Shown here: positions 4,712-29,305 of the stretch, piece by piece | Numbering within the stretch: the first letter of the stretch is position 1 | How the letters are laid out: each line of letters begins with the position of its first letter | DNA from: Bryum argenteum | Lineage: Eukaryota; Streptophyta; Bryopsida; Bryales; Bryaceae | NCBI GenBank assembly: GCA_037043015.1 | Contig: CM073321.1 | Span: 31,970,101-32,034,100 of the forward strand | Direction of reading: 5' to 3' | DNA: 64,000 bases | Made by a program: the position numbers and the translations under genes | The notes under the pieces: model-generated | What the model saw: only the letters and a program-made list of their open reading frames with translations | Database searches by the model: none | What the model was told of the DNA's origin: nothing

Positions 4712-4713
<2 letters not shown>

Positions 4714-4742: not shown

Positions 4743-4779
4743 CTTGCAACTTAAGGTCCAACATCCGTTCTAACTTCAA

Positions 4780-7410: not shown

Positions 7411-7514
7411 CTCAGTCGGAGGCGTGGAGGCAGGTTGTCAAAGTTGAAGAATCTAGGAGACAGCTTAGACACGGGTGGTATGTATGTTGATGTTTTAATA
7501 AACTCAATTATATC
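7312..7514. repeat. 203-bp direct duplication, left copy (partner 8,240-8,442)
   Basis: The sequence from 7,312 to 7,514 recurs at 8,240-8,442 at a constant offset of 928 bp with only a few differences. It covers the gag-protease junction of the Ty3 element. The two copies flank a 725-bp block foreign to the element. The right copy leads into the continuing protease frame. Confidence 0.9.
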
Positions 7515-8239
7515 AAGGTCGTGTTCTCTGTACGCGCCGGGCTTCAAGTAGAGGGGCAACTCTAGCGCGTAGAATACAGAGGGTATTGTATCCAACACAC
7601 TCTGAGCATGGCTACTCCTCTTGACAAAGAAGAGGAGGGGGAGCAAGTGCTTCTCTGAAGCTTTTCCCTCTCCTATGCCATTGAAACGCTCGTTGCTGCA
7701 AGGCATGTAGTTGGCTGCCTTGCGAGCGTACTCGTCCTTCAACTTCTTGTCGACGTAAACCACTGCCTGGCAGTGACGGTCGACGTTGGACGTGATGAAC
7801 ATCCAGACCTCGGGATTCTTGATGTGAGGATCGGTTACGGTGTTCGCCCACACATCAAGGAATTCTTGGAAGTATGGACTCTCAGTGTCGTCCATTCTAC
7901 TTCCACTACCAAGGACAGATCGTAAATCAATCAAGCCGATATCACACTTGCTAGATTGGTTTCAGGCGAAGTCCTTGTCCCATATCCCGAATCTTAATTC
8001 GGAAGAGTAAAAGAGCCGCGTGTAAACAATCGGTGCAGGAGGTTCAAACGTCCCTTTGACATCCAGGAACTTCTTGAAGAACTCGGCTGCATATTCCGAA
8101 ATCTCTGCTGTACTCCTATTCTTCGTCTGCTTTTGGCGGTAGAGGGTGAAGAACGAGTCGCCCGGGACCGAGAGAAGCATGGACTTAGTCTGACGAGTCA
8201 GATTGTATTCCACCTGCGAAGAAATACTTCCAGTATATG
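7515..8239 (-). pseudogene. Foreign coding-like fragment captured inside the Ty3 element (minus strand)
   Basis: Between the two 203-bp duplications lies a block whose minus strand is open from 8,213 down to about 7,515, apart from one in-frame stop near 7,963. It encodes roughly 230 residues (for example LDVKGTFEPPAPIVYTRLFY and VTDPHIKNPEVWMFITSNVD). Ty3 elements have nothing like this between gag and protease, and the strand is opposite to the element. The product is not recognised. The simplest reading is a host gene fragment trapped during template switching or break repair; an intron could also explain the stop. Confidence 0.6.
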
Positions 8240-8240
8240 A

Positions 8241-11200: not shown

Positions 11201-11340
11201 CAGAGAGGGCGAATCAAGAGCTTGAAACATATCTTCGTATTTTCACGACATTTGAGCAAGAAGATTGGGCTTTTCGATTTGCCGATCGCGATGATGGCGT
11301 TGAATAATCTTGTGTCGCGATCTATAGGTATGTCTGCATT
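8241..11340 (+). pseudogene. pol of Ty3 chromovirus: protease, reverse transcriptase, RNase H, integrase (broken)
   Basis: Protease shows the DSG active site near 8,460 and a LGKGWMERHDA-type end near 8,690. Reverse transcriptase (about 9,100-9,560) has the RFCVDYRRLN and VTPFGLTGAPATFQ blocks and the YIDD catalytic motif at 9,501-9,512. RNase H (about 9,730-10,300) contains FLGFCNYYRQFI, SNYPIHDKEMLAVV and LSRRE. Integrase (about 10,700-11,300) shows the first Asp in ELSIDFITGLAP (near 10,910), the second in VSDRGSQF (near 11,097) and the Glu in GATERANQELE (near 11,205). Stops and frameshifts at about 8,742, 9,600, 9,680, 10,130, 10,300 and through the integrase inactivate it. Confidence 0.9.
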
Positions 11341-11736
11341 TTTATGACTCACGGTTATCATCATTCGGTCATGAATATTACTATACCCGAGGAGGCGGGT
11401 TCTTCGTTGTCACCGGCGGAAAAAGGACGCAAGCTTGTTGAGCATCGGCGTAATTCAAGTGAATCGCAACAACGGCAATGGCCATTGCGCAAGAGACTCA
11501 AGAACGCCGATCAAATACACGACGCGCTCGGTGGCGAGGATTTTCGTCCGGGTGATCGTGTGTGGTTGAAGTTGAAGAACATCAACACGTCCCGCCAAAT
11601 CAAGAAGCTTGATTGGATTGCTCTTCCTTATCGTGTATTGGAGTGCGTAGGTACACATGCGGTTCGTTTGAATACACCGCCGGTATTCATCCTGCTTTTC
11701 ATGTGAGTTTAGTGAAGAAGGCAAAACGAGGATCCG

Positions 11737-12012
11737 TTGCCTTCCCAACTATCTCATGATAATGAGCCCGGTGTTGTTTTGAGCAATCCCGCTTTCGAGG
11801 CATCCACTAGCGAGGACGAGTATGCTGTTGAAAGAGTGTTGCAACATCGACGTCGTGGGCGCGGTTGGCAACTACTTGTAAAGTGTACAGGATGGCCGGA
11901 GCCTACTTGGGAACATGTTTGCCAATTACAAAATGTCATGGCTTTAGACGATTACGAGCGCTTGTTGCGCGCGTCTGGTACTGATATTCCTTGGGCACAT
12001 TCTCTTGTATGA
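11737..12012 (+). pseudogene. Integrase C-terminal chromodomain of Ty3 chromovirus
   Basis: The frame contains EYAVERVLQHRRRGRGWQLL followed by VKCTGWPEPTWEHV, the hallmark chromodomain pattern (E-Y-x-V-E-x-I/V-L, then W, then W-E). Chromodomains on integrase target chromoviruses to particular chromatin. A frame break near 11,700 separates it from the upstream integrase part. Confidence 0.85.
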
Positions 12013-12035
12013 CACTTGTTAATTCATCAGCACAT

Positions 12036-12292
12036 GAGGAGGAGGAGGAGGAGGCATTTGTCATGGGCCAAAGCCTCGTTGATAAGCTCGGATGTTCACT
12101 CGCTATTAATTTTATAAATAGAACTTCGGCAATAGAGCTAAAGTATAGCCTCGGCAGTAGAGCTAAAGTATAGCCTCGGTAGTTGAGCCAAGAGATTAGT
12201 ATATAAGAGACTCTTATTCATTGTAAACCTAAGTCTTGGATCAATATATTTCTTTTGTAGTTTTTGCTTGTTTTGACAGCTAGACTCTTACA
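12036..12292 (+). repeat. Polypurine tract and 3' LTR of Ty3 chromovirus
   Basis: A GAGGAGGAGG-type tract at 12,036-12,054 directly precedes the 3' LTR (12,059-12,292). This is the expected position of the plus-strand primer. The LTR ends CTCTTACA and is followed by the GCTGA target duplication. Confidence 0.88.
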
Positions 12293-12706
12293 GCTGACTC
12301 TTGTAGGTGCGATGAGAATCTACTATACCGCGCCCATCCTTCCTCTATCTCCAAAGTCCAATCAACATCATTGTTTCGCCCCATCTTAGTGTAGTTTGTA
12401 CGCTCCATCATCTCTTCAATATCCCCACAAAAAGTGACCTCTACGAAGTCATATCGTTTTTTCAATATGTTCGTACAGAACTTCTCCAATAAAGCATCTA
12501 CAACTTCACGTGATTCTTTTGATGTAGATGCAATCGATTTCAGATCTTCTTTTGCCCTCGAAACCAAGCTCTTCCTATCTTGAAGTCGATGAACCCATCC
12601 CAACCATGGTGGTATGCGTAGGTGGATTGTTGCCTCTGTAGAATCTACCATTTTGAAGGTTTTCCGTAATGCCTCCAATTCAGCGACTACCTCATCTCTC
12701 TCTTTA
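12293..12706 (-). pseudogene. Gene A, outer copy, 3' part (inverted), proximal segment
   Basis: The minus strand from 12,706 reads the coiled-coil continuation KERDEVVAELEALRKTFK and then PPWLGWVHRLQDRKSLVSRA, equivalent to 24,429-24,850 of the right-hand copy. It is joined to 4,780-5,841 once the Ty3 element is ignored. At the position of the premature stop at 24,626 in the right-hand copy, this copy has a sense codon (ASTSKESREVV), showing that the stop there is a later mutation. Confidence 0.88.
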
Positions 12707-12800
12707 CTTGTAGCCAGGGATGTCAATCCGGACGTCTTTTGGGTTTTTTTGGTCGAACGGATGTCCGTCCGTCCGGACGTCCGTCCAGGGGGTAAATCGG
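12707..12800. repeat. Inverted target duplication CTTGTAGC and hAT terminus (type b)
   Basis: CTTGTAGC (12,707-12,714) is the reverse complement of the duplication at 847-854 and still lies within gene A sequence. At 12,715 the terminus CAGGGATGTCAATCCGGACG begins and runs rightwards, with ACGTCCG-type subterminal words to about 12,792. It shares its first 11 bp with the type a terminus at 855. Confidence 0.88.
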
Positions 12801-12924
12801 AATTACTATGCATGTAGTAAATTTTGTAACCGTCAAATCGTATTGAAAATCGCATCATAGCCGTTCAAATAGTGTTGTGAGTGTAGGTGATAACCGTTGG
12901 ATTCAATCGGGCGGCCCAGGACCG

Positions 12925-13309
12925 TCCGATTGGCCTTGCCGACCGACCGGTCGACGCCGTCGGATCGGTCGCAGCCGACGGATCGGTCGCTTGATCGGAC
13001 ACCGGCCGTCCGAACGGTCGCGGTTTCAGTCGGCCGTCGGATCGGCCCCGGTCGGCGTCGGCCGTCCGATCGGTCGCCGTCGGCGTCGGCCGACCGATCG
13101 GTCGCGGTCTCCGTCGGCCGTCCGATCGGTGGGCCGATCGGTCGGGTCGGCCGCCGGTGATCGGTCGGGTCGGCCGGGCCGATCGGTCGGTCGGCCGCGG
13201 CTGATCGGTCGCGTCGGTCGGCGCCGGCCGTCAGATCAGTCGGGCCGGTCGACCATCGGCCGTCCGATCTAGGTCGCCGGTCGGCCATGCGATCGCGGCC
13301 TATATAAGG
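12925..13309 (+). promoter_or_regulatory. GC-rich array and TATA box upstream of gene C
   Basis: About 350 bp are made of overlapping variants of CGGCCGTCCGATCGGTCG and related words, far more GC-rich than the surroundings. TATATAAGG follows at 13,301-13,309, about 165 bp before the ATG at 13,475. A pyrimidine-rich leader (TCCTCCACTCTCCTCACTTC) lies just downstream of the TATA box. The layout is the same as at the transposase and gene A. Confidence 0.7.
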
Positions 13310-13474
13310 CCGACCGGTCCTCCACTCTCCTCACTTCTTTCCTTCGTTATCAGGGTGCGGAGTAGCTGTAGGTTGGAAATTTTTTTAATTTTCATCCACT
13401 GGCTCCTTATCCTGCAGAGGAAAGAAGTCTTTTCGTTCGTAAGGGGGGAGATTTTGCTTTTTTTTTTCACAAAG

Positions 13475-14965
13475 ATGCCCAAACATAGGGCTGGGGGTAG
13501 TGGGGGGAATCGAGGCCGGAGACCAAGGGTTGTTAGACATTTGGAGAAGTGGGAGTACCCATCCAATAACTGCAAGAACTTTCTTCGAGAGAATGTAATC
13601 GTGCGATTTTATGAGGCTAATACTCTTCCACGTTTGTTTAGCAAATACGTGAGATACAAAGAGGAAGCTGTGGCCAAATTCAAGGACGACATGATGGACC
13701 TCATGATGGAAGCGCGTCAAGATCCGGTGTGGAGAACGGAGACCGATAAGCGTGGTTTTACGGACTGGATGGAGGATAGATTAAATGATGCTCTCTGGAA
13801 TGCTATCGACATATTGAAGAGGTATGAGAGAACCACTCGAGCGGGTGATGAGGAGTTCAGGGATGTGTTATTGAGGGCGGAGGCTTTTCAAGAAGCGATG
13901 AGGCCGTATTCCAATAATAAAAACCGGGTTGGTTCCATAGGATGGTGGCGCACGGAACAAGGAAGGTTAATGGAGCTGGTTCGTACGAATAATTTGGTAG
14001 TAATTCCTATGACGGCCCGTATCATCGAGCTTGAGAAGAGGACTCTAAGGAGAGGATACGGCACAATTTCCAAAGTTCACATAAGAGGGGTTGTGGGTAT
14101 TGAAGAGTTTTGGGAATTTGCTGCAAAGACTCCCATCCATGCTGTGACACGACCAGACTTGGCCAAGGTGGAGCATCAGAATGAGGCGCTTGCTGTGAGG
14201 ATACAACATCCAGGTGTTATTCGTTTTATAGCCATTCATGCAAATAAATTCCAAGGCTATACGTATTGGTGGAATGGCGGCACGATTCGATCGATGTTGG
14301 CCCTTGATGCAAGATATGGAGATGATGTTCATGGAGAGATCGGACTCTCACCTCATTCTGATGATGAGCTTATTCGAGCTTGGCAGTTGGTTCGGTTCCG
14401 CAAAAAACGAACAGAGCTTGCTTGGGCTTTAGTGCATATCATGTGTGAAGTCCACCGGTTGAAATACCTCCACAACGATGTGTCTCCAGACAACATACTT
14501 CTTCACTTCCCTCAAGATGAATCACGGGTGTATATTGGAGTATGTGATTGGAGGCTAACCACGAGCATGGATGATAAAATGAGGTCCTTGTATATGTTCA
14601 GAAAACCCCAAGAGCGCATTGATACTCTACAAGCACGATATTGGGTAGATCCTCGGGTGGCGTACTTGTACAAACGGAGTGATGACATTCACATTATTCC
14701 CCTTCTTGATTGCGCTTCAGAGGAGTTTGCTACGGCACGAATAGCACAACGCATCCTCAAGAAGAGCATGTCGAAGGCCTACGAGAATTGCCAAAGTACA
14801 ACGGGGCCTGACCGGTGGTGCAATCAAGACTTGGCAGATGCTTTTGACCAATACTTGGAGATGGTGGCTGATGCAAAGTATACGTTGACCCACGTTGTCA
14901 ACCGCTTCATGGAATCATTCCATTGGCCGGTGCCGAATGATCATTATCGCACCAAGTATGATTAG
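13475..14965 (+). CDS. Gene C: protein-kinase-like cargo protein of the hAT element
   Basis: This is an intact 496-residue ORF; the ATG at 13,475 is chosen because it opens the conserved basic start MPKHRAGG and lies downstream of the TATA box, while the upstream extension is hydrophobic low-quality sequence. A kinase-like fold is suggested by a Gly-containing loop (RRGYGTISKVHI, near residue 195), an AAKT lysine (near residue 218), an IQHPGVIRFIAI block and a catalytic loop HNDVSPDNILL (near residue 370). CDWRL follows in place of DFG (near residue 392). The catalytic Asp and Asn and the metal-binding Asp are kept, but the loop Lys is Ser and DFG is DWR, so activity is uncertain. It is the only unbroken cargo gene. 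Its 3' end faces gene B. An inactive kinase-like scaffold is the main alternative. Confidence 0.75.
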   Translation: MPKHRAGGSGGNRGRRPRVVRHLEKWEYPSNNCKNFLRENVIVRFYEANTLPRLFSKYVRYKEEAVAKFKDDMMDLMMEARQDPVWRTETDKRGFTDWMEDRLNDALWNAIDILKRYERTTRAGDEEFRDVLLRAEAFQEAMRPYSNNKNRVGSIGWWRTEQGRLMELVRTNNLVVIPMTARIIELEKRTLRRGYGTISKVHIRGVVGIEEFWEFAAKTPIHAVTRPDLAKVEHQNEALAVRIQHPGVIRFIAIHANKFQGYTYWWNGGTIRSMLALDARYGDDVHGEIGLSPHSDDELIRAWQLVRFRKKRTELAWALVHIMCEVHRLKYLHNDVSPDNILLHFPQDESRVYIGVCDWRLTTSMDDKMRSLYMFRKPQERIDTLQARYWVDPRVAYLYKRSDDIHIIPLLDCASEEFATARIAQRILKKSMSKAYENCQSTTGPDRWCNQDLADAFDQYLEMVADAKYTLTHVVNRFMESFHWPVPNDHYRTKYD

Positions 14966-15680
14966 CAAATTAGTTATGCGCATTTCTTTTAGTTCTTGCG
15001 GCTTTATTAGATTTTTAGATTCTTCATTGAAGTTCGATGTAGATGTAGGCAAATTTTTGTAGTAAAATGTATTACATGCCTTCTATATGTATCGGCTTCA
15101 AGTACATTCTTGTTTATATATACCTTGCAATCGATTCTAATGAATGACTTCTTCTCCATTGTTTGTTATTTTATTTTATTACTTCTTACCTTCAATAGAA
15201 ATATCTCCAAATCTTCATGAACAATATTTGAGAATGTATAATGAATTGTGGAACTTCTTCATTACATCAACCTTGCGTAGTTGCGATATTAATGGTTTGT
15301 CCGAAGTCACCAAGCATAATATGACTTTTCTTACATATGCTTTTTTTTTTTGAATGAATTGATGAACATATTATATGTTAGGTGAGAGTGTGAGATCATG
15401 AAAAAGGCTTAAAGCCAAACAAAGAAATTATTACCACCAAGTGAACTTATAGTATAAAATACAAAGACATCGCCATAAAATCCTTGAAATAACAAATTAC
15501 ATAGTATATTAATATACAACGATATAGTCCGATATTGGATAATCCATTCATAAACAAAATATGGATTTCTGTATCCTCAAAATTGGCCCCTAGCAAGGCG
15601 ATAATGGTGTAGACATTATCCGTTGCCAAAAACTCCATAACCTTCACTACAATGACACTATGTATGATGATTTGTCATTC
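14966..15680. other. AT-rich spacer between convergent genes C and B
   Basis: About 700 bp of AT-rich sequence holding the 3' untranslated regions of gene C (plus) and gene B (minus). Short ORFs here show no recognisable protein. Several AATAAA-like words occur, but no terminator can be assigned. Confidence 0.6.
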
Positions 15681-16895
15681 TTAATCCGATTCTTCATCAT
15701 CGTGTTTACGACTTGGCGGCAGTGTGTAAGAAGGTGGTCCTCGAGAAGATTCTCCAAACAAGTACGTTTGCCTAAAGTTTCTTTCGGCTTCAAGCTGTTC
15801 AATGTATTCCTGCTGACTTAGAAGTGTGGCTTGTTGTAGATCTTGTTGGTACCTCGCCTCTTCGTCATCCGGAGATAGATAAGGTGCTGAAGGCAGGTTG
15901 TTACTTCCGTATGCATTCTGACCATATCCATAATTTGTGTAGCCAACAATGTCTGATCTTCTATCATATTGACCTCCATACTCGTATGTTTCCTTTGGGT
16001 GTGATGGCCTACGGTACTCGGGACTTCCGAATGTTGTACCGTATTGGTTCCCACGATTGTATGGGTTTATAGGATGAGTTGGGCTTGAGTTGCATTGAGC
16101 ATTGGATCCGCTACCCTGCTCACCTCCTAAACCATGTGTACCTCCTGTATACATTGGAGATGGGTAGTTCGAACTAGATCCACCTCTACCGTACTCACGT
16201 TCGGCTCCGTACGTGTTTTGCTGATGAGGTGGCATATAACTCACCGGAGTACTGAATTGTTGGTTTCCATGGTAATACCCCTCACTTCCTGTGCCAAAGG
16301 ATACTGGTGCTTGACGATCGTCATGGTTTGAGTCTTCTTTGAGTGCCCCCATATGCCCTTGGAGTTCCATGTTGTTGAAGTTGGGCATCCATATCACCAA
16401 CGTTCAATACGTAGTATAACAATCGCTTGGTCCCATCCAATTTGTGGGAATGAATCGGTTGCTGCGATCCAATAAATGCACGTTCAAACCTATCACAGTG
16501 GTCCAGTCAATGTCCTTGTGCAGGACTATTTCAGCCCACACCATGGCCATGGTAGAATACAACATCAATTCTGGCCTTGTGTTCTTGATTCCAACTGCAA
16601 TTGTGACTTCGTGATATCTGTGCGCAAAATGGTCGCTCTTGCAACTCTTCACTGGGCCTTCACGACGAGGACCATATTTCTCTGCTTCGTGCCGCGTCCA
16701 TAACTTCATGATGTGGTACATCTTCACGTACTTCTTGCACATGGTGCAATTCCAAATGTCCGCCCTCTCCTCTCGCCAACCCGGCTCTGCAAGACAGTTT
16801 GGGTCACTCCATGCTTCCCAATCCATTTTTGGAGGGTCGCCCTTTGGTCGTGGAGACTTGGCCTCGCCCCTCGAACGTGAAAACTTCGGCGCCAT
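15681..16895 (-). pseudogene. Gene B: shared N-terminal domain plus Tyr/Gly/Gln/Asn-rich tail, one in-frame stop
   Basis: From the ATG at 16,895 the minus strand is open to a single TGA at 16,406-16,404 and then continues in the same frame to 15,681, about 400 codons in all. The first part carries WNCTMCKKYVKMYHIMKLW, SCKSDHFAHRYHEV and LYSTMAMVWAEIVLHKDIDW. These align with gene A (TCKKYVKMYHIGKLWSR, TCKDDHFLHRAEEV, YTLLSMVYAELILKRKVNW). The CxxC and the C-x3-H-x2-H pattern suggest zinc binding, by inspection only. After the stop comes a low-complexity region rich in Tyr, Gly, Asn, Gln, Ser and Pro, resembling prion-like disordered tails, ending in an acidic stretch. The TGA could be a recent mutation or be read through. 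Function unknown. Confidence 0.7.
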
Positions 16896-17033
16896 TCCCA
16901 GCAGCGACAAGTATGCACAGTGTGGGCGTGGGTGACCCACGCGGACTCTGAGTAACGCAGTCGATGCAGCTTTAAAAAAAGCCGCAACGCACAGCTCGTT
17001 CACCAGAGTGAGGGACAATGAGCCCCTCCCCTC

Positions 17034-17310
17034 CTATTTATGCCGACCGGGATCGGACGCCATTGGCCAGCTGGCATTGGCCGTCTGATCCCGGCCGGCA
17101 GCCGTCAAATCGGCAAGCCGGCGGCCGGCGACCGGCCGGTACGACCGATCGGGGTCGCACGACCGATCGGTCGATCGGGGCCGTCCGATGGCGCGGCCGA
17201 TAGGTCGATCGGGGCCGCCGATCCCGGCCGACCGGCGACCGGGCCGGAGACCGACGACCGGGCCGGACACCGACGACCGGGCCGGAGACCGACCCCGTCC
17301 CCCAGGCAAC
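17034..17310 (-). promoter_or_regulatory. GC-rich array and TATA-like box upstream of gene B
   Basis: On the minus strand a CATAAATAGG box (17,034-17,042) lies about 140 bp before the gene B ATG. It is preceded by about 260 bp of CGGCCG/GATCGG-rich sequence. The array also sits directly upstream of the rightward segment at 17,311 on, so it could act in both directions. Confidence 0.6.
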
Positions 17311-20045
17311 CGGTCGGTCGCTCCTTCCGCGTCTCCCCTTCCCCCTCCTCCTCTTGCCTCACCCCAAAACTCCCCGTTAGCACAACTTCGAACACTTCCT
17401 CGCCTTGCATACCTGCATTTTCAAAAGTTCTATATTTAGCCTCTTTGGTCCACGTGGCGTCTAAATAAGGACAGGGAATGTTCTGACAAGGGAATGTTGG
17501 GAATGTCTTTTCGTCATAAACGGGAATGTTTTATGACAAAGATACTATCGGCTTTAAATAAACCTATAATAAGGGACTCTTTGCAAGAGGAGGGAAGGCC
17601 AACAAATCTCCAAGCCAATTCACGCACTTTTTGAGTTATGTTGCCCAATTAGCTTTAATTGAACAATACATTTAACAACCAATTTAGTGGGGCCAATTTT
17701 CCGAGTCGTGAAGTCCTTTGGAGTTGAAGCCCATGTCTAGAAGGAGAGCCAAGGCCATGGGGCCAATTCTTATTATTAACTAGAGTCCATGTTTTTTTTT
17801 TGTACACATTTATTTTTTATATTTTATTTTTTGGAATTATTCTTCCCTAACACCTTAACAACCATGGCCACCATTTCGTCTTTTATCGTCACGGCCAAAA
17901 AATGTTTCATATTCAATTTCAAATGTAATGATCTCGCATCTAGTGATGATCCAACGGTTGAAGATTTCACACTACTACATATGGTAGTTTACTCAAGATC
18001 CTATGGTTGAAATTATAAAGTATATCCAAAAATATTGGACATAGCCCCTTTGTAGTAAAACCACCTATTCTCGTACACTTAAGGAAAATTGAGGGAATCT
18101 ATATACTTGGTGTGAGAAAGGAGTGGGTTACTATTTTTCACGGATAGGAAATAGAAAAAGACAAGCTAACCCTATTTATGTGCTTTTTTAAAGCACACAC
18201 ATAAAGAAATACAAATTTTATAAGGAGAAGCCTAAAGGCGGGCACCCTAAATATGTACGCATAATGTAAATGCAAGGGAGGTGAGATCTTTATAAAGTCA
18301 AGAATCTTTGCCTCGCGCCTTTAGGTGGTTTCATCATAGTTCATAGTGGTGAGTGCTAGTATTGCAAGCTCCGTCCCCCCGATTCACATTCATTTCTTCT
18401 ATCTCCCAACTTTTGTCAAAATTTATCCATTCTCACTAGGAGATTTTGCCATGTCTTGGCCCCCATTCATGACTTGCCCCGTCTTCGCGTACTACCCGAG
18501 GTGGCCCTAAATCCCCTCTGATTACATTCCATAAATTTTACCTAGTCCTTGGTGAGAGTATATTGATGTCTCACATTGGAGAGATCCAAGTATATATGAA
18601 ATGTAGGTGATCATGTGTGAGCATTTACTTTTTATAACTTTGGTCTTACTGAGTTTGTCAATATTTAGACTTTCTATTTGGGCCTTAACATTTCCACATT
18701 GTATGGTCTATATTAATTGATGGGTATTTGGAAATTACTCCGTCGTTGTGTATTCTAATTAGTAATACTTATTATAAAATATATGGTGCATAAACAATTA
18801 ATTCTATTATTCGCTATTTTTTGTTTGACAACCTTCAACTAACCTAGGGGAATATATATAATCTAGTACATATGATTAATTGTAGCATTATTCTTATTGT
18901 ATGGATTTGAATAGTTACTTATTTCCCTCTTACAAAGGTAATTGAAATAAGTTTTCATTGTTACTATTTTTGCAATCATAAAATAAGAGAAATAAATAGG
19001 GAGACAAATAAATTTTAAAAAATATCCCACCCTATAAGTGTTTAACATATGGCAATAATGGCATCAACTTCTAAATTTTTAAGCATATTTGATATTGTAC
19101 AAGTATAGTACATTAGTACTAGGATTAGATGTTATATCAAATTGATTATTCGTATACTATGATTGATTGATTTAGGAATAGAATATTTTGAAGAGCCATC
19201 ACTTCTTCATTTACTGTATGTAATGGATACATTCTCTTGAGGATAAACTTTAAGTTCTTGGTTAAAGATGTATGAATTACTATGTAGGCCTCTAGGGTAT
19301 AGGGTTTAGGGTATAGGGTTTAGGGTTTAGGGTTTCTGGTCTTGAGGATTTGGGGTGGATTTCATTTTAATCCTAGTTTTTGTGTTGCGAAGCTTTGCAA
19401 ACACAATTGTGTGTGGATGTAAAATAATGGATTACTGTATGTATGGTGTAGTTCTCAATTATATTTTACATGGATACAAGTTGCACTTCTCTACATCGCA
19501 TAGTTAATGTGTGCAAAATAATATATTTTGTATTTATCATTTTTGATTGAAGATGTTATTGACATGGAATAAATCACACATTTATTGCAAAGAATATATA
19601 GGTACAATATTAAACATCAACATACGAATTATAATTCCAAAGTCTTCAATCTCATAGGCTATTTTAAACCAATATTGGAATAGAGTTACTATTGTAGGTC
19701 ATGTGGCTCAGAGTTTAATTCATAGAGCCTCATAGATCATAACGTATGAGTACTGAAGTAGTGTTTGTACGAAACATCTTTGAATTCGTGAAGATCTATA
19801 CTTTTATGGAGTTCACTCGAAATGGTTATGAACTTAAAATTTAAAGTTCAAATGTATCCGTGAAAAAAGAATACTTAGCATTTCAGAAATCAACATAGGA
19901 TTCCCTTTTCATTGTGTAGTAATTACTGAAAATCGAGTAACAGAAATCTTTGAGAAATAAAAAAAGGATCCTATGCAATTTTATCTTATTTTGGTTATAT
20001 ATTTAAGGAAAAGAATTTTAAAAAAAAATAAAATAAAAAAATAAA
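17311..20045. repeat. Non-coding repeat unit I of the hAT element (diverged partner 20,236-22,060)
   Basis: No protein-coding gene is recognised. The unit begins next to a GC-rich array with a pyrimidine-rich block (TCCCCTTCCCCCTCCTCC) and matches unit II in collinear blocks: 17,311-17,790 with 20,215-20,740, and 19,680-19,990 with 21,310-21,930 (ending GGATCCTATGC). The block 17,850-18,060 matches the mobile insert at 21,532-21,791. The two units look like an old tandem duplication of array plus downstream sequence. An untranslated RNA gene cannot be excluded. Confidence 0.7.
19291..19335 (+). repeat. Interstitial telomere-type TTTAGGG repeat
   Basis: A short run of TTTAGGG and TATAGGG units (about six in total) matches the plant telomere repeat. 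It lies inside non-coding unit I and is too short to be a telomere. Such tracts often mark repair sites. Confidence 0.85.
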
Positions 20046-21527
20046 AATAAAAACTATACTGCGGCCCCCATTTCGGTTGGCCGCCATCGGGCGGGCGTGC
20101 GACCGGCCCGGCGTCCGGCGACCGGCGATCGTCCCGGCGTCCGGCGACCGGCCCGGCGACCGGCCCGGCGACCGCCGACCGGCCTGGGGATTGACCACGT
20201 CCCCCGGACGACCGGTCGGTCGCTCCTTCCGCGTCCCCCCTTCCCCCTCCTCCTTTTGCCTCTCCCCAAACTCCCCGTTTGCACAACTTCGATCACTTCC
20301 TCGCCTTGCATACCTGCATTTTCAAAAGTACTATATTTAGTCTTTATGATCCACGTGGCGTCTAAATATGGACACGGAATTTTCTGACAAGAGAATGTCG
20401 GGAATATCTCTTTGTCCCACGCGAGAATGTTTTATAACAAAGATACTCTTGGCTTTAAATATATCCATAGTAATGGACTTTCTTCAAGGGGAGTTAAGGC
20501 GAGCAAATCTCCACGCCAATACTCACTTTTTGAGTTGTTGTGCCCAATTGGCTCGAATCGAAGTAAACATTTAACAATCAATATAGTGTGGTCAATTTTC
20601 TCATTTGTGAAGGCATTGAGAGTTCATGCCCTTGTTTATAAGGAAAGCAAAGGCAATGGGGCCAATTCTTATTATAAGTTAAAGACCATGCTTTTGATTG
20701 TACACCTTAATTTATTTTGTTAAAATATTCCTTCTTAACCCCTAAAGATCCATGGACACCAAAGTGGAGGTTTCCTATTTCGGGCAGCTTAGATGAAGAG
20801 GTCAAAAGTAATAATTTTTTATTAAATTTTTTCTAGGTGGTCCTTACACCGCAAAGTGCATGTGGTAAAATTTGCATATCCAAATTCCAAATTTACAACC
20901 TACATCTAGAATATTGAGGTTTGAAGTCCATTAAGGGCAGTTAAATTTAGTCTTTGTTTGAAATTCTTTTTTGGAAATATGTTCATGAACAATTTACTAC
21001 TTCAGTTCCAAAGTGACCCAAGTCAAAATGTTTGTCTATTTCACAAGGGTACCGTTGAGAGATTACAAAAATAATCTTCACAATTTCTAGTAATTTCCGA
21101 TATAAGTCATATAACTCTTTCTTCGATTGATTGTTTTGAAAATATAAAATTTTAAATAGGCATCTCTTCTTCATTTAGGGTATCAAGTGGATAAAATCAC
21201 TCGTGGATAGGATTTGTGGTTTATGGTTTAGGATATATGAATAACTCTTTAGGATGAGTTCCAAAATAAGTGTCCTACATTAAGATTAGGATACTCCAAT
21301 TGACATTCTCAACCATGCAATATTGGAATAGAGTTACTGTTGTAGGTCATGTGGTTAAAAGTTTGATTCATGAAGCCAATGGTCAATTAAATTACAAAAG
21401 GAAAATAGAGACGAAAGATATTGATTCGAAACCAAATGAATGCCTTATGTTTGAAACATCTATGAATTTGTGAAGATTTACACTTTAAAGAGTCCACTCA
21501 AAATGATTATGAACTTAAAATTTAGAG

Positions 21528-21795
21528 TTAACCCCTAAACGACCACGGCCACCGATTCGGCGTTTACAGTGAAGGAAAAAATAATTTACAGTCAACTTCA
21601 AACGTTATGATCTCACATCTAGTGACGATCCAACGGTTAAAAATATTCACAGTACAACCAATGGTAGTCTACTTCAAGATCCTACGGTTGAAATTATCAA
21701 TAATTTCCAAAAATATTGGACGTACCCCCATTAGTACATAGTGGTCTGTGTTGGGATTTCAAGCTCCCGAAACATTGTGGATTTTTAGGGGTTAA
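21528..21795. mobile_element. 260-bp MITE-like insert flanked by TTAA
   Basis: The insert 21,532-21,791 begins CCCCTAAA and ends TTTAGGGG, a perfect 8-bp inverted repeat, and is flanked on both sides by TTAA. Unit I, which lacks it, reads straight through (TTTAAAGTTCAAATGTATCC near 19,840). TTAA targets and CCC-starting ends are features of piggyBac-type elements, so a non-autonomous piggyBac-like MITE is the best fit. A diverged relative lies at about 17,855-18,060. Confidence 0.65.
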
Positions 21796-21944
21796 GATGT
21801 ATCCGTGAGAAATAATATATTGCATTTCAGAAATCAACATAGGATTCCTTTTTTCAAAGGTGTGTAATAATCACCGAGAATCAAATAACAAAAAACTTTG
21901 CGAAATAAAAAAGGATCCTATGCTATGTAAGATCTCTCGAATTT

Positions 21945-21947
<3 letters not shown>

Positions 21948-22022
<75 letters not shown>
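21948..22022. repeat. (AT)n microsatellite, about 75 bp
   Basis: A pure AT run lies between non-coding unit II and the gene A promoter array. It is the longest simple repeat of the window. Confidence 0.97.
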
Positions 22023-22027
<5 letters not shown>

Positions 22028-22069
22028 TATTATTTTTATTTAAAAAAATTGAAAAAAATTGAAAAAAAA

Positions 22070-22333
22070 ACCGCGGCCGCCCATCGGTCGGGTTACGCGT
22101 TGGTCGACCGGCATCGGTCGGTCGGCATCGAGCGGCCACAATCGGCCGCCACATCGGTCGGCAGCGACCGGCCGGCCCGAACGACCGGCCACGATCGGCC
22201 GGCCCCGATCGGTCGACCGGATCGACCGGCCACGATCTGTCGGCCGGACCGGCCGGCCAGCATCGGTCGCGGTTGGCCGAGCGACCGGTCCGTGCGGCCG
22301 GTCCCTAGGGTTGGGAAGGAGGGGGGATAAAAG
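22070..22333 (+). promoter_or_regulatory. GC-rich array and TATA-like box upstream of gene A
   Basis: About 240 bp of CGGCCGGC/GATCGGTCGACC-type repeats end near 22,310. They are followed by GGATAAAAGGG (TATA-like, 22,327-22,333) and a pyrimidine-rich leader. The gene A ATG is at 22,528. The layout matches the other three gene starts of the element. Confidence 0.68.
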
Positions 22334-22527
22334 GGCTTTGGGGCCTCATTTCCCCTCACTTCTCCTTGTACTCATCCATCTCAACTGAGCTGCAACCGTA
22401 AGCATTAGCTTCTCGTGTGCTGCATTTGTGGTGGCGGGGGGAAGTCAGCGTGATACTTGCGGCTGCTGCATCGAATTTTTGCATACTTGGGATATCTTCG
22501 GGGTATTTCAAATACTCCCTACTCTTC

Positions 22528-25500
22528 ATGGCGACGGATATTGATAACACGAACATGGAAGCTGATTCTGAACAGACCTTGAGGTCACCTGCGACAGAAA
22601 ACACAAACGCAGGATTGGTGGGGACTGAGTTGGTTTTACAGGAGACACCGTCAAAGAGAGTGAAACCAAAAGGAGCGAGACATGAGTTGCACTACGACAT
22701 CTTGGATAATGAGGCCATCAAAGCTGAGATCGGTTGGGCCAATGAAACGGAGGAATATTGGAGAATGGCAACGTGCAAGAAATATGTGAAGATGTATCAC
22801 ATTGGGAAACTTTGGTCTCGAGAATGTCACAAAGTTAATACCAATAATTTTACTTGCAACCCTCAAACATGCAAGGATGATCACTTTCTTCATCGTGCTG
22901 AAGAAGTGTGGGTGGCATGGTTTGGAACTCGTCCCAAGAGCAAGGGTTATTTTTCCTATACGCTCTTGAGCATGGTGTATGCTGAGCTCATATTGAAGCG
23001 CAAGGTGAACTGGAGCACATTCACGGCGAGTAGTGCATATCCTCTTCGAATCGAGAGAAATCAAAAGGATATCTCTGATAGGTTTGATCCAGAATCAAAC
23101 TCTACAAAGGCCATATTGCAGTACTTGAGGAGGAAAACTCATGAGACGGCGGAGAAGGAATCTCCTCCAACAACCACGACACATGAGGAGGATGGAAGGA
23201 ATATGGTTCCTACGGATGCCCCAATCGTAGAACCAACTATAACTGATAGGCTCGAAGGTGCAAACGTAGTTGAAGAACCTCGTGTAACCCCGGTACCAAC
23301 ATCAGAGGAGGCAGGGCCAAGTGTAACCCCGGTACCAACATCAGAGGAGGTAGGGCCAAGTGAACCACGAGAAACCAGATCACCTACAGATGCCGTAGAT
23401 GTCATTCATACGGAAAGTAGTATGGTGGAAAATTTCGTGGACTATCTGCATACGGTACCGAGCAATAAGAGATTGGTGGAGTGGTTGAAAACCGCAGAAA
23501 TGATGGCTGATTGGTGCAATAAGGTAGATAAAGACGAAGGTTTGCCAGGGGAGGTTAGGCATAAAGCCTCAGGCGGTTCAATAGTTGCTGTAGGCGTCGA
23601 CTTCAAAGAGGTGTCAGAAAGACTTGCTACTATATCTCCTAGTTTAGTATCAATGAGTCACGCTTTGGCAACGATGTTGCCTGACATTATACAAGCTGCG
23701 GTGAATTATGAGGCAATCATAGATCGATTCCACCCTCTACTGAATGAGCGAGCGAAGAATGAGCTAATCATTGAGAAATTGCAGACAACACCAAATTACG
23801 CAACGTCTCCTTGACGAGTTTTACAAGGAATTGCGGTTGTTTGGCCAAGGTCCTGCTAGCGAGTATGTGGCAAAGTACGAAGAAGCAATGCGCCAAAGGC
23901 AGGCGGTAGAAGACTTAGAAGATAACCGATATAAGTATTTCAACTTATTTCCACCACAGGATGACACTAAGGGGGCTTCATGTAGTTATGTTGTTCCAGA
24001 ATGTGATGCGGGTGGTAAAGACGATGGTAAAGAGGATGGTGAAAAGGATGGTAATAAAGATAAGGGGAAGACCATTATCGGGACTTCTGATAGTCTTTTT
24101 CTTTCACAAATTGATGGGGGTGGTAAAGAGGATGGTGAAGAAGAGAAGAGAAAGACGTATATCAGGGATTTATCTCCTCTCAAAGAGGTTGGTGAAGAGG
24201 ATGGTAAAGAAGATAAGGGAAAAACCATTATCAAAATAGACGATGATGACGATGATGAACTTCCGGAGGAATTGAAGTTAAGATCACAAAAGGAGGTAGA
24301 TGATGGACAGATTGAGCGACAACGAGCATGGGCGATGAAGTTCGCGGCAGTGAAGAAGGAGAGAGATGTTACAGTTGCGAAATTGGAGGAGGAAGCAAAA
24401 GCATGCTCAATGAAGTTGGAGGCTACAAGTAAAGAGAGAGATGAGGCAGTCGCTGAATTGGAGGCATTACGGACAACCTTCAAAACGGTAGATTCTACAG
24501 AGGCAGCAATCCACCTTCACCTACGCATACTACCATGGTTGGGATGGGTTCATCGACTTCAAGATAAGAGGAGCTTGGTTTCGAGAGCAAAAGAAGATCT
24601 GAAATCGATTGCATCTACACCAAAGTAATCACGTGAAGTTGTAGATGCTTCATTGGAGAAGTTCGTTACGAACAGATCAAAAAAACGATATGACCCCATA
24701 GAGGTCACTTTTTGGGGGGAAATTGAAGAGATGATGGAGCGTACAAACTACTCTAAGATGGGACGAAACAATGATGTTGATTGGACTTTGGAGATAGAGG
24801 AAGGATGGGCGCCGTATAGTAGATTCTCATCGCACCTCCAAGAGTCAGCTCGCATAGTAATCAACACATGCGACCCTCCTCCCGCAATACTTAAAGACAA
24901 ATGTGCGGTGTGCCTACATAATTTTGGTCCGGAGGGCGCATACACGTTAGGCCAATGTGGCCATAACTTTCATGTTACTTGCATATGCCGATATGCGATG
25001 ACAAAATCGGTATGTCCAGTATGTCGCTCCCCATTTAGCACGAGATTCTACGAGATGATGGGCATTCGAGATCTTATGCCACCAGAGCACGAGTTCAACC
25101 GATGGAATCTTCCATTGGATCAATACCCAAAGAAATTTCTAAACTACTCTGATTGGGGAAATGCTCTTACCTGGAGTACATCCGAATCAAAACACCAAAT
25201 AGCCATTCAATTTGGTGGGGATCATGATCAGTTATTTTGGATGACACGAGATTACGAAATAGAGATCAGGGCGAGGAATATTGAAGGTGATGAGCAACGA
25301 GAGTTGTTTTGTCGTAATTTCGGAGGGCATTGGAGCGTCGAACACAACCGTTTCTTTCGATTTCTTCCAAAGAAAGTGGAAAAGGGAGAAGATGGTTCGT
25401 GGCACGAAATAACCGATTCATAGGCTTTGGTGAGGAGTACAAGAAGTACGATCATACTCCAATTGGAAGAGCTCTGGTACTCGCGAAATTAGGGGAGGCC

Positions 25501-25911
25501 TTAATATACCGGATTTCGATACCGGAAAATTCTTTTGAAGATGTGGAGGTCTCTTATTGGGATGCGGTGAAGAAGTTTGATACGCGTATCGATGACGCCA
25601 TTACATTTTGGAGAGAATGTCTTTTAAACCCAAAAGACACACAACTTCTATTATTGGATGAGTTTGAAGGTGTTGTACAGGATGTCATTGCAAAGATCGA
25701 GAAGGCCATGGAAATCTTACATAACAAACAAGTGGATCCGAGCAAAAAGCGGAAGAGGCAATCGGGCGACGATGGGGAGGATAGTTGGCAGGCAGGTATG
25801 AGAGGCGAAATCGCGGTGGATCGAGAGTATGAGGAGGGCGGTCGAATTGCCCGTCCAAGTCAAAGACCGCGTACTCGCAGTAGCTCAGTTGGCCAATCGG
25901 ATGGATCTTGA
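22528..25911 (+). pseudogene. Gene A: RING-H2 cargo protein of the hAT element (three lesions)
   Basis: From the ATG at 22,528 the product would have about 1,125 residues. Domains in order: a shared N-terminal domain (22,700-23,120; TCKKYVKMYHIGKLWSR, TCKDDHFLHRAEEV); a Pro/Thr/Glu-rich linker with a repeated VTPVPTSEE block; a helical region; an acidic stretch with EDGKEDKGKTII repeats and Asp runs; a coiled coil (24,290-24,480); a RING-H2 finger at 24,902-25,024; a conserved C-terminal domain; and a basic end (KKRKRQ). In the RING finger the spacing is C-x2-C-x14-C-x-H-x2-H-x2-C-x10-C-x2-C, as in E3 ubiquitin ligases. Lesions are a frameshift near 23,800, GAA to TAA at 24,626, and a two-base loss near 25,415. 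The inverted copy lacks the last two, so the ancestor was open there. Confidence 0.85.
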
Positions 25912-25953
25912 TTTGAAGTTAGAACGGATGTTGGACCTTAAGTTGCAAGTATA

Positions 25954-25956
<3 letters not shown>

Positions 25957-26010
<54 letters not shown>
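25957..26010. repeat. (AT)n microsatellite between gene A and transposase
   Basis: It is the counterpart of 4,714-4,742 in the inverted arm, at the same place between the two convergent 3' ends but about twice as long. Confidence 0.95.
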
Positions 26011-26012
<2 letters not shown>

Positions 26013-26338
26013 TTTTTTTTAGATTGTATGGTTGTTGTTTTAAAAAAGATGAAAATGCCACCATTGATCCATGGGGCCTTATTTTTGAAATAAAGGGTTA
26101 CAATCTTTTTGATTTAATGTGCATTTCTTTTGCATGCTTGAGAGTGAAGACTATCGTACGACAAGTATGTAAAAATATATGTAATATTTTTCAAAACATT
26201 CAATGTAGTCATGTAGACAATAGAATCTCCAAATGCATTTGGAGTATAACAATAAAGTACTACAGTAAACTATAACTACAATTTCTATAATAAGTATAAG
26301 TCCTATAAACCTATACTACATAAAGATGCGAAAATCAA

Positions 26339-29111
26339 CTACTCATCAGGACCAGAGGATTGCTCATAATCGCTATCTCCCTTCACTTCAGCTCCACTAG
26401 ATCCCGTAGGATCATATTTATAATCGCTTGGAACCTCCTCTTTGATCTTGGGTTTATTCTCTGGACATTGTATATTCCCATACTTATGCCAAGTATCAAA
26501 TTCGGGGAGATTAACAGGGATCTTCGATTTTTTAGGCGGAACAATTGGAACCGTTGCAGATTTCCGTTTATGCGACTTGGAAGTGCCAAGCATGTGCTGT
26601 AACCCCGTGGCAGTACGAAGAACATTGGCATTCTTTAAATACCTGCCCAACGGTACATCAGAGTCACTAGAGATGCTCCCATATTTGGCTCTTGAAAGGG
26701 ATACTAAACCCTTAGAGGATTTCTCCAAGGTTGTCGTAACCCTTGTAGTAGAGGGTTGAAATAAAGCGCGGGGAGTAGCACATTGTAAAGATACTTGATC
26801 CTTACTGCCGGATGCGATATTCTCCGCGACTGGATCAGAGCTCATAGTATTCGCAGTAGTATTGCACGCCGTGGTCTTCACATCTATTGCCTCCTTTTCC
26901 AACCGTAAACCACTAGCGAGAACAAGTAGGATGTTATTCGATTTGTCCATGCCGCCTTGTGTCATTAACCGTGCTAATGGCTGCTCATCCTCTAGATCAT
27001 CCGCCGAAACACCATGAGCGATAAAATCACCATTAGCATCCTGAACATTTGGAGCATCTTCATCATTTGAAGCGCGGAAGAAAGTCATATCATCGTCTTC
27101 ATCACCAAATTCAAAAATATGATTGTCATTAGACTCTGATTCGTCCTCGACAGCTTCCTCATCGTTTTCATGTACTTGGTCTTCCTCTAAATCCAAGTTC
27201 TCTTTATACCACCGCCCATCGTCACTCAACTTATCATTCGCAAGCAATTTCGAGTTGGAATATATGTAGACCAAGTCATCAGCTCTCCCCAATAGTAACT
27301 GATTCCGTTTCTTGTCGCGAACATAAGAGTAGCTACTCCAGTTGCGTTCGCAAGCCGACGAGGACACGGTTTGTGCTAGTATTCGCTTTGCAATTGGAGA
27401 GAGGAGCTTAGCACAAGCACCTTCAAACTCCCACCATGCATGTGGAGCTAGTTTTTGAGTATTAGGCTCCAGCATGTCATGGAATGGTGGACCCCTTACT
27501 CAAAACAAGAAATTCACTCACCACGTCGGCGTAATCCTCCGCGGGACATAATTTTTGTAAAACACGCTTGCAAGCTATTGTAAGATCGGGATCGTCAACT
27601 AACTCTTGGTCGTGTAGTAAATAAGGATTTAAAAGTGCAGCCGCGCCATGTAAATCCGTTGTCATGAGCCGTTTCCGATGGTAAAACTCCTCTTTTGCAG
27701 TGGCCACCTCAAGTGGTTCCAAATAGAATGGTAGTGCATGCAAAGTATGGACATGTCTCTCAAGATTTCGCATGATATGCCAAGCCTTGCTTGTACTAGA
27801 AGCCTTGCCGTCAAATTCTCTCGATGCATAAACTACGGGGGCCACCATATCCCGTAATCTTATGCATTGCTTCCAAAACTCATCGCTCAACTCCACCTTC
27901 TTGATCTTACGGGAGAATATAATCCTATCTCTAGCTGATATTGTCTTCTTCGAGGCATAGGCTGTGAACATAGGGTCGACAACAACTTGCTCCAATGATT
28001 CCTTGACCTCCAACAAGCGATCTATCATTATGAATTGACTAGCAAATCTTGTTTTCCCAGGCATCAATAGGCTGAATTTCGCCTCGTGTTTACGAAATAC
28101 AGCTAGGGGCATGTGTCGCCTCTTGATAAAATTGACCATTCTCTTTGCCATGACCAAAGTATTCGCCATCCATCCAGCCTTTCTCCAATCCTCCAACAAC
28201 AAGTCCATTGCATGTGTCGCACACCCTTGCATGAAAATGTGCGGATATTTCTCAAGGACTATTCTTGAGGCATTGAGCATTACAGAAGCATTGTCTGTGC
28301 ATACTTGAACAATGTTCTCTGGTCCAACTTGTTCTATGTACTTCAACATGAGAGTTGACATGTACACCGCTGTTTTTTCTATGCCAGTAGTATCCACAGC
28401 ACCAAGAAAAAGCTCTCCAGCTTGAGTCACGAGCATCGCATTCAACAAAGGGCGACTAGTCATAGATGACCAACCATCCATAGTCAAAGTTCCTCCAAAC
28501 TTCCGAAGGCTCTCCGAGAGTCTACTATCTAGTTTCTTTTGTAACTCCGTCTTTACTTCTCTTAACAACCTTGTCCAAATGTCATGGTAAGATAGTGGAG
28601 CATAGGATTTTTCAAAATCCAGCAGTTTTCATTACAGCAGATTTGAACGCATCATTCCGGGCTACAGAAAACGGTAAATTTGCTTTGTAGAAATTTTTGC
28701 CCAAAGTATATCTAACTCCCGCCTATCCGCTTCTGCAAAAGTAGCTCCAATTGAAGATTGTTTGGTTTGCTTCATAGATCCAAACAACGGGTGAGTATCC
28801 TTAATTCCCCTCATAAGCATGGAAGAAGCAGAGGTTGACCCAACCAAAAGATTTGCTGAATTCATGGGGTGCCTAGCGAGGACCCTACACAAGAGTCACT
28901 CCTAGGGGTTTCTAGAATGTCATGTTTTGAGGCACCGGGAACGTCCGTGGATGGAGTGAGAGAACATTCACCAAGAAATCCGTCCAATTCTCTGTTATAT
29001 GGAGGGAACCCCCCGCCACATCTTAAAAACTACTGCCTAATTTCCCTAGGCAGCTTTGAGCAAAGGGTAGAACTCGAATCCCTATGTCCAGGAATCTTCT
29101 CGTACCCATAA
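26339..29111 (-). pseudogene. hAT transposase, right copy, lacking promoter and start codon
   Basis: The minus strand matches the left transposase: the end of the BED region (about 29,110-29,040), a DUF659 core (28,568-27,477, with TMDGWSS and CTDNASVML), hATC (about 27,460-27,270) and the acidic tail to the stop at 26,339. The region from 28,568 to 27,477 is open here but broken in the left copy. This copy has its own frameshifts near 28,620-28,670 and near 27,500. About 500 bp covering the GC-rich array, TATA box, ATG and first zinc ligands are missing at about 29,150-29,165. Only a few residues differ between the two copies in the last 570 codons. Confidence 0.9.
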
Positions 29112-29165
29112 TGACTCAGATTCCGACTCTTCTTCTTAGAAACTATTACATGAGCGAGCTGGAGG

Positions 29166-29305
29166 ACCGGTCAACGGGGTGGTTCGACCAATGAACGCAT
29201 CCTGTTGTTCAATTACCCTTAGTAAAAGGATCAAAACCTCTAAGTCACGGACGGTCGCCGGACCCGTGCCGGACGTCCGGACGCTGAGACATCCGTGTGC
29301 ACACT
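29166..29305. repeat. Right hAT terminus (type a) and predicted outer target duplication
   Basis: The reverse complement reads CACGGATGTCTCAGCGTCC, then ACGTCCGG and GGTCCGG words and the CCGTCCGTGACTT block also seen at 917-929. The terminus differs from the 855 terminus at two positions. The following bases TGCACACT (29,298-29,305) should be the target duplication of the outer copy, whose other end is predicted left of this window. Confidence 0.75.

What the first reader, a model, noticed from the sequence alone, without database searches (positions are those of the whole stretch)
12715..29297. A 16.6-kb hAT transposon with three cargo genes in two convergent pairs
Ends with CAGGGATGTCA-type termini enclose a hAT transposase, a RING-H2 protein, a kinase-like protein and a Tyr/Gly-rich protein. 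Typical hAT elements carry one transposase gene in 3-6 kb. The cargo is not a random host insertion: the partial copy at 1-12,714 shares the transposase and gene A in the same arrangement, so cargo and transposase have moved together. A RING ligase plus a kinase-like protein could act on the transposase or on host silencing; this is inference.
Basis: partly seen in the sequence, partly recalled or inferred. Interest (0 to 1): 0.92.

Follow-up and report, generated by a model that had tools for sequence, protein, structure and literature searches.

The report
Four-gene hAT transposon in moss
A 17-kilobase jumping gene, apparently of mosses, carries not only the enzyme that moves it but also a protein kinase, a ubiquitin-ligase-like protein and a related third protein that travel with it, which suggests a mobile element with its own regulatory kit.

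Summary
The finding is real. Window 12715-29297 is one copy of a hAT transposon of about 17 kb with four genes in two convergent pairs: protein kinase, Tyr/Gly-rich protein, RING-H2 protein, hAT transposase. The eight similar-sized intervals fetched from the same genome, plus this copy, carry all four genes (9 of 9). Four of the eight have perfect 8-bp target duplications, and empty paralogous sites confirm boundaries of three copies. Genome-wide the genes are linked far above shifted controls. No short transposase-only version was seen: in 21 of 48 transposase loci with a perfect left end nearby, the span is at least 11.4 kb. A divergent family in this genome keeps kinase, RING protein and transposase at roughly 25-42% identity. 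Correction: the 'partial copy' at 1-12714 is not in the same arrangement; its right part is inverted, with the 8-bp signature of reversed-ends transposition. New here: a divergent cassette inside the RING protein, a domain shared by two accessory proteins, and GACCG repeats near gene starts. What the accessory proteins do is inferred. None of the nine copies has all four frames open.

The parts
12715..29297 (+). hAT element 2, whole (family A copy)
   Evidence: ends; 8 full-length relatives in the genome
12715..12725 (+). left terminal inverted repeat CAGGGATGTCA
   Evidence: the extended 30-mer has 80 genome sites against 0 in the control
29287..29297 (-). right terminal inverted repeat, degenerate (2 mismatches)
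12865..13330 (.). GACCG/CGGTC repeat cluster and TATA box (13301) before ORF1
13475..14965 (+). ORF1, protein kinase (496 codons from the ATG; stop-to-stop frame 13205-14965)
   Evidence: kinase fold; catalytic residues; start codon read by eye
15681..17033 (-). ORF2, KLWP domain plus Tyr/Gly-rich tail; one in-frame stop (16404-16406) in this copy
17034..22300 (.). central noncoding region with internal duplications and GACCG clusters at about 17.1, 20.1 and 22.1 kb
22402..25911 (+). ORF3, KLWP domain, divergent cassette, coiled coil, RING-H2; frame-broken in this copy
23340..23850 (+). divergent cassette of ORF3 (codons about 311-480; type I here); window coordinates approximate
24896..25027 (+). 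RING-H2 finger
   Evidence: Pfam zf-RING_2 E 9.6e-10
26339..29150 (-). ORF4, hAT transposase (DUF659, Dimer_Tnp_hAT); frame-broken in this copy; 5' limit approximate
24422..24429 (.). GCTACAAG, the 8-bp target sequence as it stands in intact ORF3
1..854 (+). element 1: part corresponding to 22830-24429 with gaps, uninverted, continuing left of the window
855..12714 (-). element 1: right part (29297 back to 24422), inverted
847..854 (+). GCTACAAG at the first junction
12707..12714 (-). GCTACAAG (inverted) at the second junction
5842..12291 (+). LTR retrotransposon inserted in element 1 (not part of the hAT)
   Evidence: LTR repeats; RT and RNase H

Best explanation
This is a hAT transposon lineage of about 17 kb in what is probably a moss genome. 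The transposase and three accessory genes (protein kinase, KLWP-domain Tyr/Gly-rich protein, KLWP-domain RING-H2 protein) form one long-inherited unit that has moved together between CAGGGATGTCA ends and makes 8-bp target duplications. That much is shown by sequence. Inferred: the transposase or a KLWP protein binds GACCG-type repeats that lie near the ends and near gene starts, so that mobility and accessory expression are controlled together; the RING protein, with a divergent recognition cassette, marks a host silencing or regulatory factor (or the transposase) for ubiquitination, with the kinase as a switch. I give the unit itself about 0.95 and the anti-silencing or regulatory role about 0.35; the figure below is for the whole statement read with those marks.
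For: Nine of nine full-size copies carry all four genes. Exact 8-bp duplications in 4 of 8, and empty paralogous sites for three copies. Linkage against shifted controls: kinase-ORF2 43 of 85 against a mean of 0.25; transposase with kinase or ORF2 37 of 48 against 1.2; transposase-ORF3 18 of 48 against 0.04. Mean dN/dS of ORF1, ORF2, ORF4 and the ORF3 C-half is 0.37-0.51 against 0.63-0.92 in noncoding frames. A second family has the same kinds of genes at roughly 25-42% identity. RING and transposase relatives share exact contig length and source in three metagenome cases. Invariant kinase and RING residues. GACCG clusters.
Against: No function was tested and no expression data seen. None of the nine full copies has all four frames open, so present autonomy is not shown. 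Mean dN/dS of the ORF3 N-half is 0.89, within the control range. Eleven of 48 transposase loci had no listed kinase or ORF2 partner; lists are truncated, and one of the eleven (4.67 Mb) has both. One kinase locus (1.13 Mb) stands alone in 18 kb. Two of seven longer end pairs lack a duplication. Linkage in other organisms rests on equal contig lengths only.
Confidence: 0.8

Rival explanations
1. Transposition cofactors: kinase, RING and KLWP proteins are parts or regulators of the transposition machinery (end binding, transposase turnover, target choice), not agents against the host.
For: Co-conservation with the transposase. GACCG repeats near the ends of the full elements and of the three short noncoding relatives.
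Against: The divergent cassette in the RING protein is more like a recognition surface under pressure from a partner; hAT elements move with one transposase protein (recalled).
Confidence: 0.35
2. Pack-TYPE capture: an ordinary hAT element recently picked up host gene pieces that are passengers.
For: Plant hAT elements are known to capture gene fragments (passages of PMC8903248).
Against: The genes are full length and lie in 9 of 9 copies together with the transposase. They recur in a second family at roughly 25-42% identity and as full-length relatives in other sources. dN/dS is below the controls for most parts. Pack-TYPE elements are non-autonomous by definition.
Confidence: 0.03
3. For window 1-12714: nested insertion of element 2 into element 1 followed by an unrelated inversion, rather than reversed-ends transposition.
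For: Element 2 does begin at a break in element 1's ORF3.
Against: Both junctions lie at exact ends of two different elements, and the 8-bp target stands at both in opposite orientation, as described for inversions made by maize Ac (passages of PMC8225341).
Confidence: 0.07

Closest known systems
Maize Ac and typical plant hAT elements (size and gene number recalled; 11-bp ends from the abstract of PMC3260210 in the listing)
   Same: Short terminal inverted repeats, 8-bp duplications, hAT transposase; rearrangement by reversed ends
   Different: Ac has one gene in 4.6 kb; here four genes in about 17 kb
hAT7 elements with a TET/JBP dioxygenase in rust fungi (abstract and passages of PMC12730594)
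   Same: A hAT element with an accessory gene thought to act on silencing
   Different: 7-bp duplications, fungal, and the accessory gene is a dioxygenase; no kinase, RING or KLWP protein
IS3EU elements of fungi with an alpha-kinase and TET/JBP gene (passages of PMC12730594)
   Same: A DNA transposon carrying a kinase in opposite orientation to the transposase
   Different: Another transposon superfamily and another kinase class
Plant VANDAL (MuDR-type) elements with an anti-silencing protein (one sentence in PMC12730594; otherwise recalled)
   Same: Autonomous-type plant transposons with an accessory regulator
   Different: Another superfamily; the protein is not a RING or kinase protein (recalled)
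Pack-hAT elements (abstract and passages of PMC8903248)
   Same: hAT ends enclosing gene sequence in plants
   Different: Non-autonomous with captured fragments; here the transposase and full-length genes are present
ToxhAT/ToxTA of wheat pathogens (abstract and passages of PMC12506042)
   Same: 14-kb DNA transposon with cargo, once called a hAT
   Different: Its authors now place it near Tc1/mariner on a TA duplication and call it non-autonomous

Membership tests
hAT superfamily | 8-bp target site duplication | tested here: met
   exact in 4 of 8 same-sized copies, in 1 of 1 further 16-kb copy and 3 of 7 longer pairs; not present at the window copy itself
hAT superfamily | short terminal inverted repeats | tested here: met
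   CAGGGATGTCA at both ends of the eight fetched copies; these were chosen by that motif. Right end of the window copy degenerate
hAT superfamily | transposase with hAT dimerisation domain | tested here: met
   PF05699 E 2.2e-11, PF04937 E 4e-32
hAT superfamily | active DNA cleavage by the transposase | not testable with these tools
   empty sites show past movement only
Pack-TYPE hAT | lacks a transposase, carries captured gene fragments | tested here: not met
   transposase at 940-951 of 951 residues in 9 of 9 copies
Protein kinase (ORF1) | kinase fold and catalytic residues | tested here: met
   Foldseek probability 1.00; Lys, Asp, Asn, Asp invariant in 14 sequences. The Pfam score is below the curated cut-off
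Protein kinase (ORF1) | phosphotransfer activity | not testable with these tools
   HND and DWG replace HRD and DFG in most relatives
RING-H2 E3 ligase (ORF3) | eight zinc ligands in C3H2C3 order | tested here: met
   all eight invariant in 13 relatives
RING-H2 E3 ligase (ORF3) | ubiquitin ligase activity | not testable with these tools
   none
Anti-silencing transposon proteins (VANC-like) | loss of silencing at the element when expressed | not testable with these tools
   resemblance in role only, inferred
Reversed-ends transposition product (window 1-12714) | inversion with a transposon end at each breakpoint and the 8-bp target at both | tested here: met
   description in passages of PMC8225341

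The most novel reading that the evidence does not exclude
A plant DNA transposon lineage carries its own ubiquitin-and-kinase signalling kit with a swappable recognition cassette. The RING protein targets changing host silencing factors at element promoters marked by GACCG repeats, in an arms race, and this let a 17-kb element spread, above all on one large, possibly sex-linked, chromosome.
Probability: 0.28. Interest if true: 0.92.

Novelty: new variant of a known kind. Interest (0 to 1): 0.78.

Why it matters
Plant hAT elements are usually thought of as one-gene elements of a few kilobases (recalled). A multigene hAT unit whose kinase, RING protein and KLWP-domain proteins persisted through deep divergence, with a divergent cassette inside the RING protein, gives a concrete system for asking how large DNA transposons keep and use accessory genes, and whether they manipulate host ubiquitin or silencing pathways. 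The window also holds a natural footprint of reversed-ends transposition, a process described for maize Ac/Ds in the passages I saw.

Tried and rejected
Pfam on stop-to-stop frames of the window copy missed the kinase; an open copy gave weak kinase matches below the curated cut-off, and the predicted fold settled it.

Scans of viral contigs (kinase and RING profiles) and of bacterial/archaeal genome contigs (kinase profile), hoping for misbinned plant contigs, confirmed no relative.

The AlphaFold model of a RING relative had mean pLDDT 41 and was not used. A search for a decayed KLWP gene in 17.0-22.3 kb gave only chance-level matches.

Five-taxon trees of transposase and RING region gave the same topology, but with bootstrap 65 and 38 (transposase) and 90 and 66 (RING), so I do not rest on them.

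Considered and rejected: recent host-gene capture; transposase-only short elements. The three 3-5 kb relatives examined have exact duplications but no match to the four genes.

No paper on a hAT element with kinase plus RING cargo was seen in my ten paper searches, limited to the held open-access library. What I saw of papers: PMC12730594 abstract and passages; PMC8225341 passages; PMC8903248 and PMC12506042 start of abstract and passages; PMC3260210 start of abstract; other papers only as listings.

Not done: identification of the host species. That it is a moss is inferred from the kinase search, where the only plant named among the 47 hits is Ceratodon purpureus (two hits; one other named organism, a 'Bacilli bacterium' metagenome bin, may be contamination).
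Full report
OBSERVATION. The window lies at C1:31970101-32034100 of a 258.8-Mb, 25-contig genome. The exact 11-mer CAGGGATGTCA begins at 12715, and the mirrored end is at 29297, degenerate by two bases. Within the window the 11-mer is not significant, but the genome has 616 exact sites against 102 for the reversed pattern. Part of that excess is another repeat (GGCATGGCAGGGATGTCATCATTA...). The 30-base left end is clean: 80 sites against 0.

RECURRENCE. From the 100 places listed (the first 22 Mb of C1 only) I took plus/minus end pairs by eye. Eight pairs are 16.8-18.7 kb apart, and all eight intervals are relatives of window 12715-29297; long matching segments are 87-96% identical. Their 8-bp flanks match exactly in four (GACACCAC, ATCAATAG, GTGATTAC, TGTGTCGC), with one mismatch in two, two in one and three in one. 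All nine full-size copies, window included, contain all four genes: 477-508 of 508 residues of ORF1, 315-430 of 430 of ORF2, 1116-1140 of 1140 of ORF3, 940-951 of 951 of ORF4. None of the nine has all four frames open. A further pair at 4.95 Mb (16.0 kb) has an exact duplication and shortened remains of all four genes. Seven longer pairs (23-40 kb) were first checked at their ends: three exact duplications, two with one mismatch, two without; of these seven only the one at 2.77 Mb was read inside.

EMPTY SITES. For two copies that landed in repeats, 40 of 40 scored genome matches (of 195 and 315 candidates) to the joined flanks run across the junction. For one copy with nearly unique flanks, one paralogous place runs across it at 82%, another covers only bases 4-104, and the other two matches are the copy's own flanks.

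LINKAGE GENOME-WIDE. These searches score only the best candidates, so numbers are lower bounds. Kinase: 92 matches, 85 loci after merging; ORF2: 102 and 98; transposase: 55 and 48; ORF3: 59 and 48. 43 of 85 kinases have ORF2 convergent within 5 kb, most often about 723 bp away; 200 shifted controls average 0.25, maximum 2. 37 of 48 transposases have a listed kinase or ORF2 on the correct side within 30 kb (24 kinase, 27 ORF2, 14 both); control mean 1.2, maximum 5. 18 of 48 have ORF3 convergent within 3 kb; control mean 0.04, maximum 2. Eleven transposases had no listed kinase or ORF2 partner; one of them (4.67 Mb) demonstrably has both, and one other has a listed ORF3 partner. In 21 of 48 loci a perfect left end lies on the correct side within 60 kb: 3 at 11.4-13.4 kb, 14 at 15.9-18.0 kb, 4 at 22.5-30.3 kb, none shorter; two of the 21 point to the same left end, so one of those (29.5 kb) is probably not its own. 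The refuting case of transposase-only elements was therefore not found among those measurable. Against the reading: one kinase locus (1.13 Mb) stands without the other genes in 18 kb, and element 1 has lost ORF2.

GENES. ORF1 is a protein kinase. Sequence matches are weak (Pfam Pkinase 20.8 bits, below its cut-off of 31.7; PDB E 2e-4), but a relative's predicted fold (pLDDT 85) matches kinases with Foldseek probability 1.00. The catalytic Lys, Asp, Asn and Asp are invariant in 14 sequences, with HND for HRD and DWG for DFG in most. ORF3 has a RING-H2 with all eight zinc ligands invariant in 13 relatives. ORF2 and ORF3 share an N-terminal domain (CKKYVKMYHI.KLWPR; I call it KLWP; four examples aligned). 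At E up to 1, Pfam gave for one ORF2 copy only DUF2961 (E 0.012) and zf-C3HC (E 0.2, overlapping this domain), for a second copy nothing, and for the ORF3 copies nothing in this domain. ORF4 has DUF659 and the hAT dimerisation domain. Genome-wide, each of the four genes has some copies without internal stops over the matched stretch.

SELECTION. Mean dN/dS over 36 pairs of nine copies, codons with gaps or stops dropped: ORF1 0.47, ORF2 0.51, ORF3 C-half 0.48, ORF4 0.37, ORF3 N-half 0.89; noncoding control frames 0.63-0.92. Pairs are not independent, so this is a comparison, not a test. Within ORF3, codons about 301-480 are several-fold more divergent than most of the gene at both site classes, with a ratio of 0.85-1.26. 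In codons 311-480 the copies fall into two types of four, 69-76% identical between types and 87-97% within; E4.67 is 76-81% to all others. The same copies are 91-98% identical in codons 1-300, 87-98% in 481-700 and 92-99% in 701-1140. This looks like an old, exchanged cassette; positive selection is not proven.

SHARED MOTIF. GACCG-containing 7-mers (CGACCGG, CCGACCG and complements) cluster near the left end before ORF1, at about 17.1 kb before ORF2, at 20.1 kb, at 22.1 kb before ORF3, and in most other copies near the right end before ORF4. In the window copy 41 of 46 occurrences fall in five 250-bp bins; window 31-64 kb has 2. The three short noncoding relatives have 26-41 each, mainly near their ends. 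Family B has 28 in 33 kb, and its GC-rich stretches hold related words (GGCGACCG), some of them inside its LTR insert. No shuffle control was made for this motif. Binding by the transposase or a KLWP protein is inference.

SECOND FAMILY. The element at C1:2771040-2804110 has the end CAGGGATGTCAAAATGG, flanks GTGCACAG/GTGCACAA, and a retrotransposon with 99.4% identical LTRs in its transposase gene. It encodes a kinase (31-42% to ORF1; 83-85% to P0047), a RING protein (25-28% to five queries over the RING region), a transposase (35-39% to ORF4), and KLWP-like regions at four places (24-39%), one of them in front of the RING region. Kinase lies near the left and transposase near the right end as in family A, but orientations differ. 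The kinds of genes have therefore stayed together through deep divergence.

OTHER ORGANISMS. Kinase relatives (47) include two annotated in Ceratodon purpureus: M758_3G001500 (56%) and KC19_VG055000 (43%; tag suggests the V chromosome; 126 member sequences). RING relatives: 13; transposase relatives: 37. RING and transposase relatives share exact contig length and source in three cases (8444, 7321, 17649 bp), and kinase and transposase in one (27639 bp); I could not fetch those contigs. That the host is a moss follows from this and is inferred.

REARRANGEMENT. Window 1-854 corresponds to element positions up to 24429; 855-12714 corresponds to 29297 back to 24422. Both junctions are exact ends, and the 8-bp GCTACAAG is at 847-854 and, inverted, at 12707-12714; the undisturbed target is at 24422-24429 of element 2. 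This is the product expected if the right end of element 1 and the left end of element 2 jumped together into element 1's own ORF3, as described for maize Ac (passages of PMC8225341). It also explains why element 2 lacks matching flanks. Element 1 continues left of the window without ORF2 and without a detectable left end.

MECHANISM. Shown: a four-gene unit that has transposed as one (exact duplications, empty sites), with conserved accessory proteins. Inferred: GACCG repeats give common control; RING and kinase proteins act on a host repressor or on the transposase. I favour a regulatory or anti-silencing role (0.35), with transposition cofactors about as likely (0.35).

NOVELTY. hAT elements with a TET/JBP gene are known in rust fungi (hAT7), and Pack-TYPE hATs in plants. 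A four-gene plant hAT with kinase, RING and KLWP proteins was not seen in my ten paper searches. I rate it a new variant of a known kind.

Noticed in passing
window 847-12725: Inverted element part with the 8-bp target at both junctions in opposite orientation: footprint of reversed-ends transposition between two neighbouring elements.
   Followed up: yes
genome contig C1 (44.1 of 258.8 Mb, 17%): Best-scoring copies pile up on C1: 59 of 85 kinase, 77 of 98 ORF2, 36 of 48 transposase, 28 of 48 ORF3 loci, but only 26 of 80 perfect left ends (lists truncated). A Ceratodon relative carries a V-chromosome tag. C1 may be a sex chromosome or heterochromatin-rich; not tested.
   Followed up: partly
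ORF3 codons about 311-480 in nine copies: Two types of cassette, 69-76% identical, between flanks that are mostly 90-98% identical.
   Followed up: partly
L025, L026, L027: Noncoding relatives of 3-5 kb with CAATATGG-type left ends, exact 8-bp duplications and GACCG repeats near the ends: non-autonomous elements, probably moved by a related transposase.
   Followed up: partly
window 38923-44246: Ty3-type LTR retrotransposon genes (gag, RNase H, integrase) right of the element.
   Followed up: no
L007, L047, L048: CAGGGATGTCATCATTA... belongs to an unrelated repeat and inflates counts of the 11-mer.
   Followed up: no
protein P0019: A kinase relative is filed under a 'Bacilli bacterium' metagenome bin; probably plant contamination of the bin.
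   Followed up: no
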